Positions 13,795 to 64,000 of a DNA stretch of 64,000 bases are shown one piece after another. Location: NCBI RefSeq assembly GCF_003121705.1, contig NZ_PYHR01000002.1, forward strand, positions 1,798,001 to 1,862,000, written 5' to 3'. The stretch is from Serinibacter arcticus. GTDB lineage: Bacteria > Actinomycetota > Actinomycetes > Actinomycetales > Beutenbergiaceae. The number at the start of each line of letters is the position of its first letter. The stretch's first letter is position 1. A program made the translations under genes and the position numbers. The notes under the pieces are model-generated. The model was not told where the DNA came from. It made no database searches and saw nothing but the letters and a program-made list of their open reading frames with translations.

Positions 13795-14850
13795 CTACTC
13801 GCCGGGGTAGACGACGCCGACCTGGCGACGCACCTCGTCCATGATCTCCATGACCTCGACGGACGCCTGCCACGACATGAGCGGCGAGCTCGTCTCACCG
13901 GCGTCGATCCGGCGCGCGGCCTCGGCCGCCTGGAACTGGAAACCGCCCGGGAGGCGCCCGGCGACGTCCTGACGCGTGCCGTCGAGCAGCGCGAGGTGGA
14001 CGTCGGTGGGGTTGTAGAAGGTGGGGTCGAGGTCGATCCGGCCCTTGGTGCCGGCGATGGTCGCGTTGTTGAGCATCGCCGTCTCCATCGAGGACGTGGC
14101 GACCGCGACCGCGCGCTGCCCGTAGCGCAGCACCACGGTCTCGGCCTTGTCGACCCCGAGGTCGGACAGCTCGCCGTAGGCGTGCACCTCGTCCGGGACG
14201 CCGAGCACCGCGTGCGCGAAAGAGATCGGGTAGACGCCGAGATCGAGCAGCGCGCCGCCCGCGAGATCCGGGTTCCACAGCCGGTGCTCGGGCCCGCCCG
14301 GGATGTTCTGGCCGTGCAGCGCCGTGAGAGAGATGACGTCACCGATCGTCCCGGCGGCGACGGCGTCGACGGTCGCGCGGTAGCTGGGCAGGAACCGCGC
14401 CCACATCGCCTCCATCGCGAACAGGCCGCGGGCGGCGGCGGCGTCGAAGATCTCGCGCGCCTCGGCGGCGTTGCGCGTGATCGCCTTCTCGACGAGGACC
14501 GGCTTGCCCGCGTTCAGGGCGAGCAGGGCGTGGTCACGGTGCTCGCTGTGCGGGGAGGCGACGTAGATCGCGTCGATCTCGGGGTCGGCCACGAGCTCCT
14601 CGTAGGAGCCGTAGGAGCGCGGCACGTCCATCTCGGCGGCGAACGCGGCGGCGCGGTCGGCGCTGCGGGAGCCGACGGCGGCGATCACCGAGGAGGTGTG
14701 GTGCGGGATGTCGGTGGCGAACTTCCGTGCGATCCCGCCTGCGGCGAGGATGCCCCACCGGATCGCGGGCGCGTCCTTCGGGTCGGGGTAGGAGCTGAGC
14801 GGGGGGAGGGGGGCGGCAGCGGACGGGGCGGCGGCAGTGGCGTCGGTCAC
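13795..14850 (-). CDS. Gfo/Idh/MocA family NAD(P)-dependent oxidoreductase
   Basis: 351 residues. The Rossmann fold IRWGILAAGGIARKFATDI lies after a 30-residue Ala/Pro-rich leader. YVASPHSEHRDHALLALNAG and VLVEKAITRN follow (the usual EKP is EKA here), then the C-terminal substrate domain with GGALLDLGVYPISFA. The family oxidises or reduces sugars and trans-dihydrodiols. No sugar genes are adjacent, so the substrate is unknown. The start lies next to a tandem-repeat array, so its promoter must lie in or beyond that array. Confidence 0.9.
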   Translation of the reverse strand: MTDATAAAPSAAAPLPPLSSYPDPKDAPAIRWGILAAGGIARKFATDIPHHTSSVIAAVGSRSADRAAAFAAEMDVPRSYGSYEELVADPEIDAIYVASPHSEHRDHALLALNAGKPVLVEKAITRNAAEAREIFDAAAARGLFAMEAMWARFLPSYRATVDAVAAGTIGDVISLTALHGQNIPGGPEHRLWNPDLAGGALLDLGVYPISFAHAVLGVPDEVHAYGELSDLGVDKAETVVLRYGQRAVAVATSSMETAMLNNATIAGTKGRIDLDPTFYNPTDVHLALLDGTRQDVAGRLPGGFQFQAAEAARRIDAGETSSPLMSWQASVEVMEIMDEVRRQVGVVYPGE

Positions 14851-14883: not shown

Positions 14884-15037
14884 TCGCGAGGCCCTTCCGG
14901 CCCACTCGCGAGGCCCTTCCGGCCCGGTCGCGAGGCCCTTCCGGCCCACTCGCGAGGCCCTTCCGGTCCACTCGCGAGGCCCTTCCGGCCCGGCCGCGAG
15001 GCCTTTCGGGCCCACTCGCGAGGCCCTTCCGGCCCGC
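14884..15037 (+). repeat. 22-bp tandem repeat array A, seven units
   Basis: Seven direct copies with an exact 22-base period start at 14884, 14906, 14928, 14950, 14972, 14994 and 15016. The core TCGCGAGGCCCTTCCGGCCC is nearly constant, and variation sits mainly in the last few bases. There are no spacers. The array fills almost the whole gap between two minus-strand genes, starting 7 bases after the stop of the DUF3592-like gene. The same repeat recurs at 16000-16104 and 63202-63333. Confidence 0.95.
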
Positions 15038-15044
15038 CGTCGCG

Positions 15045-15917
15045 CTACATCCGCCAGCGCAGGAAGTCCTCCGCCGTGTGCGCCTCGAGCCCGCCGAGGT
15101 AGATCCTGCGCCTGTCGCCCGGGGCCGCCGGGTCGTAGAGGACCGTGACGCGATCGCCGACCCTCGGGAGGTCGTCGCGCGGGAACTTCCCGCTGCTCGT
15201 GACCCACCGGTCGGTGAGCGAGCGGTCCACGAAGTGCACCGTCCACGGGGCGAGAAGCGCACTCCCCTCGGTGAGCGTCGGGATCTCGGTGACGTCGCCG
15301 ATCGTGCGCTGACCCTTGAGGACCAGGCGGTCGAGCTCACGACGGCGACCCGCACGTCGCGCCCGGGCGATCACTCCGGTCACGAGGCTGAGAAGGGCGA
15401 CGCCGACGGCGACCCACGGGATCCAGCGGTCCGCGTGGTACCAGGCCCAGTCGGTGGACGACCAGACCTCGTCTTCGCCGAACGACTCGTCGACCCGGAC
15501 GCCCACCGTCAGCGGCGGCGGCCACTCGTGGATCCTGGCGGTGAGCCCTGCGGCGAAGCCCGCGAGCCAGACGGTCAGCGGCCCGACGAGCGGGAAGCTC
15601 ATGATCTGCCCGGTGTAGGCGCGAGCGGCGGCCGTGAGCACGAACATGCCGATGATCGGGAGGACGATACCCACGGGGAGCGCCACCAGGTCGAAGCCCG
15701 ACGGACCGAGGTCGGTCGGGGACTCGGCGAAGAAGTGGTTGAGCGCGTGGTCCCGGAACTGGCCGAGGAAGGTGTCACCGGCCGTCGCCCACCCGGCGGA
15801 GGCGCCACCGGCGAGGATCAGCAGGTTGCCCAGCACGACGCCGATCGCGGCGCCGAAGGAACCTTGACGTGCCTGGGACCGCTCACGCCTGACGCGGGCC
15901 GGATCGATGGTGCTCAC
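15045..15917 (-). CDS. DUF3592-like membrane protein
   Basis: 290 residues with four predicted membrane helices: around GAAIGVVLGNLLILAGG, VALPVGIVLPIIGMFVLTAA, VGPLTVWLAGFAAGL and WIPWVAVGVALLSLVTGVI. A C-terminal soluble beta-rich domain has the DUF3592-type ending GDRVTVLYDPAAPGDRRRIY. GGGGAGG just before the GTG at 15917 decides the start over an upstream ATG at 15980. The function of the family is unknown. It is flanked on both sides by 22-bp repeat arrays. Confidence 0.75.
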   Translation of the reverse strand: MSTIDPARVRRERSQARQGSFGAAIGVVLGNLLILAGGASAGWATAGDTFLGQFRDHALNHFFAESPTDLGPSGFDLVALPVGIVLPIIGMFVLTAAARAYTGQIMSFPLVGPLTVWLAGFAAGLTARIHEWPPPLTVGVRVDESFGEDEVWSSTDWAWYHADRWIPWVAVGVALLSLVTGVIARARRAGRRRELDRLVLKGQRTIGDVTEIPTLTEGSALLAPWTVHFVDRSLTDRWVTSSGKFPRDDLPRVGDRVTVLYDPAAPGDRRRIYLGGLEAHTAEDFLRWRM

Positions 15918-15999
15918 GGTGCCTCCCCTCACGCCGCGCCCCAGCGGTGCGTCGTAAAGGAAAGGTAAAGCGTGCGTCAAGCAGGCGCAAGAGGTGGTG

Positions 16000-16104
16000 C
16001 CTGAACGGTCTCGCCGTCACACCCGAAGGGCCTCGCCAATAGACCCAAAGGGCCTCGCCGTCACACCCGAAAGGCCTCGCGACCAGACCCGAAAGGCCTC
16101 GCGA
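16000..16104 (-). repeat. 22-bp tandem repeat array B, four full units plus a decayed fifth
   Basis: Read on the minus strand, four units start at 16104, 16082, 16060 and 16038, and a degenerate fifth starts at 16016. The consensus is TCGCGAGGCCTTTCGGGT plus four variable bases. It starts 3 bases after the topA stop codon and reads in the topA direction. It belongs to the same family as arrays A and C, with its own sub-consensus (CGGGT in place of CCGGCCC). Confidence 0.93.
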
Positions 16105-58678: not shown

Positions 58679-58814
58679 CCGACAAGTCGCCTTCCCCCGC
58701 TGGAGACGGCGGCCATCCGCGTACGCACGCGGGTGGCCGCCCGCGCCCTCGCCCCGGCCGGATAGGCTGGGCCCCGCAGCACGCAGCACCCACAACTTCA
58801 CACCCGGCCCCATC

Positions 58815-59060
58815 ACCGCGCGGGAGAGCCCGGACCACGTCGCCCCACCGGACGTGAGTCAGGCACCGAAGGAGCAAGCCTCCCCGCCAACCTCTCAGGT
58901 ACCCCGTACCGCGCGGCGAGGCCACTCTGGAAAGCAGCGCCGGTCGTCGGTCCTCAGGCCCACGACCAGACGCTCGCCCACGGTGAAAGCCGCGCCCCGC
59001 CGTCGCCCCCGACGCGCCCTGCGGTGAATCTCTCAGGCACCCGCGACAGAGGGGGAGTCC
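58815..59060 (+). ncRNA. tandem glycine riboswitch upstream of gcvT
   Basis: Two glycine aptamers follow one another. The first spans GCGCGGGAGAGCC to about TACCGCGCG, with CACCGAAGGAGCAAGCCTCC and CCAACCTCTCAGGTACC. The second runs through GCCACTCTGGAAAGCAG and CACGGTGAAAGCC, closing with GGTGAATCTCTCAGGCACC. The GGAGAG, GAAGGAGCAA and CTCTCAGG signatures are characteristic of the class. Binding of glycine turns on the glycine cleavage genes immediately downstream. The 58679-58814 stretch before it should hold the promoter; I see no clear boxes. Confidence 0.93.
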
Positions 59061-59104: not shown

Positions 59105-60318
59105 GTGACCGACGCCCCGTCGTCCACCCCGCCCCAGCGCACCGAGCTCCACCGCACCCCTCTGCACGAGACGCACGTCGCCGCCGGCGCCACCATGGTC
59201 CCGTTCGCGGGCTGGTCGATGCCCGTGAAGTACTCCTCCGACGTCGCCGAGCACGTCGCCGTCCGCAGCTCCGCCGGTCTCTTCGACATCTCCCACATGG
59301 GGCAGCTCGTCGTCGACGGCCCCGACGCCGCCGCGTTCCTCGACCACGCGCTCGCCGGCCGGATGAGCGCGCTGGCGCCGCTGCAGAGCAAGTACACGAT
59401 GATGCTCGCGCCGTCGGGCGGCATCGTCGACGACCTCATCGTCACGAACACGCACACGCCCGAGACGGCGGCCGCACGAGACTCGGCGGCGCCCACCAGC
59501 TACCTCGTGGTCGCCAACGCCGGCAACCGCGACGCCGTGCTCGCCGCCCTGATCGAGCGGACGACGACGGCGGAGCGCACCTTCGACGTCGTCGTCACCG
59601 ACACCCACCGCGCCCTGATCGCGGTGCAGGGCCCCCGCGCGCAGGCGATCCTGGAGGAGCTCGCGGCCGCCGGACGCCTCACGCTCGACGCCTCCTCGGG
59701 CGCCACCCTCGCCGACCTGCGCTACTACCGCAGCGCGCCCGGCGCCTTCGACGGCCAGACGATCACGCTCAGCCGCACCGGTTACACCGGCGAGGACGGG
59801 TTCGAGATCTCGGTCGCCCCCGAGCGGGCGGTCGAGCTCTGGGAGGCGATCTCCGCCGTCGGGCAGCCGCACGGCCTTGTCCTCGCGGGCCTCGCGAGCC
59901 GCGACACGCTGCGCCTCGAGGCCGGGATGCCGCTGTACGGGCACGAGCTCACGCTCGACACGCTGCCGGCGCAGGCGGGTCTCGGACGCGTGGTCGTCAC
60001 CGCGAAGGAGGACTTCGTGGGGCGCGAGGCGATCCTCGCCGGGCCGCCCGCGGACGCCCCGGTGCTCGTCGGCATCGCGCTGCCTGGTCGGCGCGCGGGC
60101 CGCGCCGACTACCCCGTCGTCCTGCCCGACGGCGGTGAGCGCGTCGGCACCGTGACCTCCGGCGTCCTGTCCCCACCCTCGGCCATCCCGTCGCGATGGC
60201 CTACGTCGCCCCGCACCTCGCGGAGGTCGGCACCCCGCTCGCCGTCGACGTCCGCGGCACCGCCATCACGGGCGAGGTCGTCGCCCTGCCGTTCTACCGC
60301 CGTTCCAAGGAGTCCTGA
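59105..60318 (+). CDS. gcvT: glycine cleavage system aminomethyltransferase T, frameshifted near the 3' end
   Basis: About 404 residues if restored. GGAGGAC precedes the GTG. Family motifs are present: [13 protein letters not shown], the conserved DISHMGQL near 60, and [11 protein letters not shown] with [17 protein letters not shown]. At the CCCC run 60171-60174 the frame slips: GVLSP continues as SAIPSRWP, but adding one C gives [18 protein letters not shown] and a natural end [11 protein letters not shown]. Protein T takes the aminomethyl group from lipoyl protein H to tetrahydrofolate. A missing base in a C run suggests sequence error. No gcvH lies between this gene and gcvP. Confidence 0.9.
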
Positions 60319-60322
60319 ACCG

Positions 60323-63196
<2,874 letters not shown>

Positions 63197-63201
63197 ACCC
63201 G

Positions 63202-63333
63202 CCGCGAGGCCTTTCGGGTCCACTCGCGAGGCCTTTCGCGCCCGTTCGCGAGGCCCTTCGGGTCCACTCGCGAGGCCCTTCGCGCCCGTTCGCGAGGCCC
63301 TTCGCGCCCGTTCGCGAGGCCCTTCGGGTCGAG
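63202..63333 (+). repeat. 22-bp tandem repeat array C, six units
   Basis: Six units with exact 22-base spacing start at 63202, 63224, 63246, 63268, 63290 and 63312. The invariant core is CGCGAGGCC followed by CTTCG or TTTCG. Two endings alternate, GGTCCACT and CGCCCGTT, suggesting growth by duplicating pairs of units. It directly follows the gcvP stop codon and reads in its direction. Confidence 0.95.
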
Positions 63334-63415: not shown

Positions 63416-64000
63416 ATGGAGACGATCAACGAGGGCCGGCCGTTCCGCACCGCTTCCTGCCCGGACCTCGGGCTCCCCAGCCACCAGGTACGACACCTCG
63501 TCCGCACCCATCGCTTGCGGCGAGTCTTCCGAGGTGTTCTGGTGGACGCTTCGGTTGCCGACACCCGAGAGCTCCGCGTGGCAGCGCTGGCGCTCGTGAT
63601 TCCCGAAGGCGCGACCATCAGCGACCACTCGGCGGCCTGGGTCTACGGCGTCGACACGTATCCGCCGGGTGGCATGCGCGAGATGCGCCCGATGTGCATG
63701 GTTCGCCACGGCTTCGGGCGACCGAAGGGGCTCCGCGCCGTCGTGCGCCAGACGACGATGCCCGACCCGGACTTCGTGACCATCGGCGACGTGAAGGTGA
63801 CCTCGCCCATCCGCACGGTGAGCGACCTGCTGCGGCTGGCGTGGCGACCGCACGCCCTGGCGGCAGCGGATGCGCTGGTGCGCGCCGGCGTCGCCACCCG
63901 CCTCGAGGTGATGGAGCACGTCGCCACCCTCCGGCGTCTCCCGGGGACCAGGCAGGCGCAGGAGCTCGCGCCGCTCATCGACCCGCGCGCCCAGACCGCC
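63416..64000 (+). CDS. AbiEi-antitoxin/DUF559-like protein, 3' end cut by window
   Basis: 195 residues are visible: METINEGRPFRTASCPDLGL, then a winged-helix-like region HQVRHLVRTHRLRRVFRGVL and a domain with ATISDHSAAWVYGVDTYPP and VTSPIRTVSDLLRLAWRPHA. The pattern resembles the N-terminal part of type IV TA AbiEi-like antitoxins and DUF559-linked endonuclease-like proteins common in actinobacteria. Such proteins often end in a DUF559 nuclease-like domain, which would lie past the window edge. The 63334-63415 gap before it holds no other feature I can name. Confidence 0.7.
   Translation, partial: METINEGRPFRTASCPDLGLPSHQVRHLVRTHRLRRVFRGVLVDASVADTRELRVAALALVIPEGATISDHSAAWVYGVDTYPPGGMREMRPMCMVRHGFGRPKGLRAVVRQTTMPDPDFVTIGDVKVTSPIRTVSDLLRLAWRPHALAAADALVRAGVATRLEVMEHVATLRRLPGTRQAQELAPLIDPRAQTA

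What the first reader, a model, noticed from the sequence alone, without database searches (positions are those of the whole stretch)
14884..15037. A 22-bp tandem repeat family at three separate intergenic loci
Arrays at 14884-15037 (7 units), 16000-16104 (4-5 units, opposite strand) and 63202-63333 (6 units) share the core CGCGAGGCC(C/T)TTC with an exact 22-base period, no spacers, and locus-specific ending variants. Each begins within 10 bases of a stop codon: the DUF3592-like gene, topA and gcvP. Two read in the direction of the preceding gene and one does not, so they are not simply terminators. A 22-base period puts units on one face of the helix, which suits cooperative binding of a protein. 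They may be sites for a nucleoid or chromosome-organisation protein, or a homology-driven expanding element. I know of no named family with this unit.
Basis: seen in the sequence. Interest (0 to 1): 0.72.

Follow-up and report, generated by a model that had tools for sequence, protein, structure and literature searches.

The report
Genome-wide 22-bp satellites at gene ends
Short DNA words repeated head-to-tail every 22 bases sit just after the stop codons of some 30 scattered genes in this actinobacterium; relatives keep them behind some of the same genes but spell them differently, so they belong to a known but unexplained class of bacterial satellite DNA and look like sites for a protein not yet found.

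Summary
The three arrays are real. They are part of a genome-wide family: 38 arrays of at least 3 units at about 31 loci of the host genome. The unit is a fixed core (TTCGCGAGGCCnTTCnGG) plus a free 4-5 nt linker. Core spacing is 22 bp in 110 of 121 cases. Core columns are as conserved between loci as within arrays; linkers are not. The core therefore looks selected. Arrays lie only downstream of genes, usually 0-20 nt after a stop codon, in either orientation and never in a divergent gap. Array RNA folds no better than column-permuted arrays, and classical terminator hairpins are as frequent beside arrays as elsewhere. Five genomes in three genera carry such an array directly behind gcvP, each with its own unit and a period of 21 or 22. 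The gcvP array of each genome matches that genome's other arrays rather than its gcvP orthologues (concerted turnover). This fits the published, functionally unexplained class of 20-23 nt bacterial satellites (Subirana & Messeguer). Most likely these are DNA-level binding sites for an unidentified protein at gene ends. A neutral or selfish satellite is the main rival. Protein, transcription and function are untested.

The parts
14884..15037 (+). Array 1, 7 units of 22 bp (CGCGAGGCCCTTCCGGCCCACT), antisense to the adjacent gene; its far end is 7-10 nt from that gene's stop codon
15994..16103 (-). Array 2, 5 units (2 degenerate), sense, directly behind topA
   Evidence: no such array behind topA in the relatives read
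63201..63333 (+). Array 3, 6 units alternating linkers TCCACT and GCCCGTT, sense, directly behind gcvP
   Evidence: arrays with other units at the same place in G001, G002, G006, G007
15045..15980 (-). Gene between two facing arrays, weak DUF3592 match; absent between topA and the oxidoreductase gene in G002, G009, G011, G018 and others, so an insertion in this genome
16108..18888 (-). topA, gene upstream of array 2
59105..63196 (+). gcvT-gcvP reading frame, gene upstream of array 3
13795..14850 (-). Gfo/Idh/MocA oxidoreductase gene on the other side of array 1 (its start faces the array)
63416..64000 (+). Start of a 302-codon gene between array 3 and the facing array at C2:1862324-1862432 (outside the window)

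Best explanation
The arrays are copies of a noncoding bacterial satellite family. Each unit is a conserved core (TTCGCGAG-n4-TTCnGG in this genome) plus a free linker, repeated every two helical turns so that the cores face one side of the DNA. SHOWN: genome-wide family, strict period, core constrained and linker free, placement at gene ends in both orientations, no folding signal, positions shared by related genera with the unit replaced genome-wide. INFERRED: a sequence-specific protein binds the cores as a cooperative row at selected gene ends and acts at the DNA level as a boundary, by blocking polymerase read-through, absorbing supercoils between neighbouring genes, or compacting the nucleoid. 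Each genome's unit follows the changing specificity of that protein, helped by slippage and some copying between loci. Identity as a 20-23 nt satellite family is about 95% sure; the confidence below is for the protein-binding DNA-level mechanism.
For: Core positions of the unit agree in about 0.9-1.0 of unit pairs both within and between arrays (the one free core position and the last C excepted), while linker columns agree in only 0.30-0.57 between loci. Spacing is 22 (110), 21 (7), 23 (1) in G000 and only 21 in G002. Isolated cores are no more frequent than the reversed-pattern control: of 141 matches nearly all are in arrays, control 16. Placement: 23 tandem, 15 convergent, 0 divergent, although divergent gaps hold 22% of intergenic bases in gaps of 60 bp or more. 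Median distance to the upstream stop is 7 nt; about 8 lone arrays are effectively antisense and 4 more are inverted partners, so transcript strand matters little. RNA folding z is about 0.15 sense and 0.13 antisense against column permutation. Length-matched hairpin frequency 9.5% against 9.0%. gcvP 3' array in 5 genomes of 3 genera with 5 different units; the facing pair behind the 2092520 gene is kept in all three congeners.
Against: No binding protein, ChIP or expression data. Arrays mark only a few percent of gene ends and are gained and lost at many loci (topA, 1747155, 1763129, 1944667 lack them in congeners), which also fits a dispensable element. Linker variants recur between loci more often than chance (18 identical pairs, 6.7 expected, P=0.003), suggesting copying between loci.
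Confidence: 0.45

Rival explanations
1. A selfish or neutral satellite: a tandem repeat that spreads and homogenises by copying and slippage and is tolerated only just behind stop codons. The core looks conserved because copying needs it.
For: Gain and loss between congeners; several unrelated subfamilies in one genome; linker sharing between loci; lone arrays in both orientations; six arrays share one register in which the unit itself supplies the antisense stop codon (TCA).
Against: Units within one array differ more in the linker than in the core, which copying alone does not give; the same gene ends keep arrays across genera; tolerance alone does not explain a start 0-20 nt from the stop when hundreds of free bases follow (e.g. 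0 against 471 nt at 1747155).
Confidence: 0.33
2. An RNA element of the 3' UTR: the repeated core in the transcript is read by an RNA-binding protein or RNase and protects or releases the mRNA end.
For: 28 of 38 arrays have a same-strand gene upstream, 26 with the stop within 55 nt; most G006 arrays start 0-20 nt behind a stop in sense; a 52-nt Bacillus satellite is transcribed (PMC8625621).
Against: About 8 of 38 arrays are effectively only antisense; strict 21/22 bp period and uninterrupted tandem form are not needed for RNA; no folding signal.
Confidence: 0.15
3. Tandem hairpin transcription terminators.
For: Position behind stop codons; facing pairs at convergent genes could form long hairpins.
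Against: Folding energy equals column-permuted arrays; no U tract; arrays coexist with classical terminators, e.g. 1747155, 1507253, 3521049; hairpins are as frequent in array gaps as in length-matched gaps.
Confidence: 0.07

Closest known systems
Bacterial 20-23 nt noncoding satellites of constant repeat size and variable sequence (Subirana & Messeguer, PMC8161180 and its ref. 3)
   Same: Noncoding, 21-22 nt period, several families per genome with the same length, species-specific sequence, a short signal kept in all units (TCGCGG in the 21-nt repeats of B. weihaiensis; here TTCGCGAG), reported in Actinobacteria
   Different: Here also shown: anchoring to stop codons, orthologous positions shared by three genera while the unit changes, core/linker split of constraint. 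In the main text of that paper the terms 'stop codon' and 'terminat' do not occur; the earlier survey (its ref. 3) was not available to read.
REP / BIME elements
   Same: Short repeats at gene 3' ends, tandem or convergent contexts, paired inverted copies
   Different: REPs are 20-40 bp palindromes, most in two super-families tagged GTAG or CGTC (abstract of PMC3733652); this unit does not fold better than permuted units, has no such tag and is a direct tandem repeat
MIRU (mycobacterial interspersed repetitive units; from memory)
   Same: Actinobacterial intergenic tandem repeats abutting or supplying stop codons
   Different: MIRUs are about 40-100 bp
Neisseria DNA uptake sequences (from memory)
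   Same: Genus-specific words, often as inverted pairs behind genes
   Different: 10-12 nt, single or paired, not 22-bp tandem arrays, also inside genes

Membership tests
20-23 nt bacterial satellites (Subirana & Messeguer) | Tandem array of at least 4 units, period 20-23 nt, constant within a genome | tested here: met
   110 of 121 core spacings are 22, 7 are 21; G002 only 21; tandem lags in G001 and G002 gaps favour 21. Many arrays have 4 or more units, some only 3
20-23 nt bacterial satellites (Subirana & Messeguer) | Noncoding | tested here: met
   Arrays of 3 or more units lie essentially in gaps between called genes; 22 is not a multiple of 3. A few overlap the uncertain start of a called gene (2193543, 2092346)
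20-23 nt bacterial satellites (Subirana & Messeguer) | Species-specific sequence, several families of one length in one genome | tested here: met
   Three subfamilies in G000; different units in G001, G002, G006, G007
20-23 nt bacterial satellites (Subirana & Messeguer) | Short signal conserved in all units of a species | tested here: met
   GCGAGG and TT in 37 of 37 array consensuses
REP/BIME | Palindromic unit able to form a hairpin | tested here: not met
   MFE z about 0 against column permutation
REP/BIME | Associated RAYT transposase | not tested
   No search made
Intrinsic terminators | Stable hairpin followed by U tract | tested here: not met
Nucleoid-protein binding array | Bound by a protein in the cell | not testable with these tools
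   needs pull-down or ChIP
KOPS-like polar motif | Orientation follows replication from oriC | tested here: not met
   dnaA at C2:2486408; of 38 arrays 17 point away from oriC and 21 towards it (counted)

The most novel reading that the evidence does not exclude
A fast-evolving partnership of satellite and binding protein: an unknown protein marks a fixed set of gene ends in related actinobacteria, and its DNA word drifts from species to species while all arrays of a genome follow, a bacterial analogue of centromere-satellite turnover. Similar cores in Bacteroidales and Cytophagales families would then be the same system.
Probability: 0.15. Interest if true: 0.8.

Novelty: new member of a known kind. 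Interest (0 to 1): 0.5.

Why it matters
Bacterial satellites of two-helical-turn period were described without a known function or location rule. This family supplies three handles: a selected core separable from a free linker, a fixed place behind the stop codon, and orthologous arrays (gcvP in five genomes) whose unit differs between species. That makes the question of what reads the unit directly testable by pull-down and by swapping cores between congeners.

Tried and rejected
RNA hairpin: folding not better than column-permuted arrays. Terminators: classical hairpins equally frequent with and without arrays after length matching. Pairing of GAGGnnnTTC with the 16S 3' end: considered because GAGGTGATCC is its complement (from memory), dropped because nnn is not TGA in the units read (inspection). 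KOPS-like polarity: none. Rare-word avoidance outside arrays (restriction or harmful site): TTCGCGAG 0.98, TCGCGAGG 0.84 of expectation, no clear signal. Viral carriage: 1 hit forward, 0 reversed in viral contigs. Naming the organism through its 10-kb contig: no plasmid match. Cross-phylum homology: the scan of genome contigs selected for the core, and only two Bacteroidales MAGs and one Cytophagales MAG have many copies; the other genomes have one to a few array matches, so shared descent is not claimed. In the Bacteroidaceae MAG arrays also lie in divergent gaps. Gene boundaries come from my own hexamer gene finder, not a curated annotation. An even sample of 396 genomes of the phylum held no other match to GAGGCnnTTC x3, but that pattern misses other units.

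Full report
OBSERVATION. The core word occurs 17 times in the window with at most one mismatch; dinucleotide shuffles give a mean of 1.8 and a maximum of 7. topA and gcvP are confirmed by Pfam; the DUF3592 label is below the curated cut-off.

GENOME-WIDE FAMILY. The pattern CGAGGCCnTTCnnG has 141 matches against 16 for the reversed pattern, and BLAST with the gcvP array finds about 40 arrays. After fetching about 0.43 Mb around them, 38 arrays of at least 3 units at about 31 loci were read in full. Two further subfamilies with the same period (GAGGGGnTTCyGCACCACC... and GGGGCACTTCCCGCCCC...) exist in the same genome. 27 of 31 loci lie in the half of the chromosome nearest dnaA (2486408; P = 3e-5 against an even spread, assuming a circular 4.05-Mb contig); array orientation does not follow replication.

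ANATOMY. Successive cores are 22 bp apart in 110 of 121 cases and 21 in 7. At 37 arrays, GCGAGG and TT are invariant among array consensuses; core columns agree equally within and between arrays, linker columns do not. This is what constraint on the core predicts and simple copying of a whole unit does not. Linker variants nevertheless recur between loci more often than chance, so some copying between loci is likely. Arrays often begin TTCGCGAGG and end soon after TTCnGG.

PLACEMENT. 23 arrays are in tandem gaps, 15 in convergent gaps and none in divergent gaps, although divergent gaps hold 22% of the bases in gaps of 60 bp or more. 26 of 38 have a same-strand stop within 55 nt upstream, median over all same-strand cases 7 nt. 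Four arrays are inverted partners of a sense array in one 3' region, and about eight lone arrays are effectively antisense. In six arrays the unit itself supplies the antisense stop codon in one register. Anchoring to the stop in either orientation argues for a DNA-level element or an insertion preference, against an RNA-only one.

NOT AN RNA HAIRPIN, NOT A TERMINATOR. Folding energy equals that of arrays with permuted columns, z 0.15 sense and 0.13 antisense (one three-unit G001 array folded better than its permutations, the other examples did not). Classical hairpins occur in 9.5% of array gaps against 9.0% of length-matched gaps.

RELATIVES. Behind topA only G000 has an array among the genomes read; several relatives have the oxidoreductase gene directly after topA, so the DUF3592-like gene with its flanking arrays is an insertion in this genome. 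Behind gcvP, five of 23 genomes have an array: G000 TTCGCGAGGCCyTTCGGGTCCAC (22), G001 GCGAGAGACTTCGGGACGTCC (21), G002 TTCGCGAGGTCCTTTCGGGCG (21), G006 TTCGCGAGGTGGTTCTGCAGGCACC (22), G007 TTTCGCGAGAGGAAGTCCGTCC (22). In 500 kb of G001, 21 bp is the commonest intergenic tandem period (11 stretches, plus 3 at 22); in 660 kb of G002 there are 3 such stretches, all at 21. The array behind the methyltransferase gene 1862442 and the facing pair behind gene 2092520 are also shared by all three congeners, while many other loci differ. In each genome the gcvP array resembles that genome's other arrays, not the gcvP arrays of relatives: concerted turnover. G006 shows the same anchoring to stop codons.

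OTHER PHYLA. A scan of public genomes for three cores at period 22 found Bacteroidales, Cytophagales and isolated others. Many copies per genome were confirmed only in two Bacteroidales MAGs and one Cytophagales MAG; the Bacteroidaceae MAG also has arrays in divergent gaps. Because the scan selected for the core, this is a lead, not a test of homology.

KNOWN KIND. Subirana and Messeguer describe 20-23 nt bacterial satellites of constant length and species-specific sequence, with a short signal common to all units, found in Actinobacteria among others, of unknown function; they suggest a protein that polymerises on the DNA, or small RNAs (PMC8161180). All four features I could test are met. 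What is added here is the gene-end anchoring, conserved positions with replaced units, and the core/linker contrast.

VERDICT. A real, genome-wide satellite family, member of a known but unexplained kind; most likely a DNA-level protein-binding array at selected gene ends (0.45), with a neutral or selfish satellite as main rival (0.33). No protein or function has been shown.

Noticed in passing
window 59105-63196: gcvT and gcvP read as one 1363-codon frame (GCV_T plus GDC-P domains); in congener G002 they are two abutting frames. Fusion or sequencing error not resolved.
   Followed up: partly
window 58811-58921: Glycine riboswitch upstream of the gcvT-gcvP frame.
   Followed up: no
L233 (G001 behind topA): Another gene inserted behind topA in G001, flanked by different GCGAGG-containing repeats (CCTCGCGCAGGGAGGC), like the DUF3592-like gene in G000.
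   Followed up: no
RGIG4863 and RUG14526 Bacteroidales loci (L082-L132): 22-bp arrays (unit rCGAGGCGCTTCCGAAATAAGC) in which many units read as AAGCGC-GAG-GCGCTT hairpins; edge units carry other stems such as AAGAGC-CTT-GCTCTT.
   Followed up: partly
G000:C2, whole chromosome: Array loci crowd into the origin-proximal half (27 of 31).
   Followed up: partly
G000:C1 (L268), 10012 bases: Small second contig without any match in the plasmid collection.
   Followed up: no
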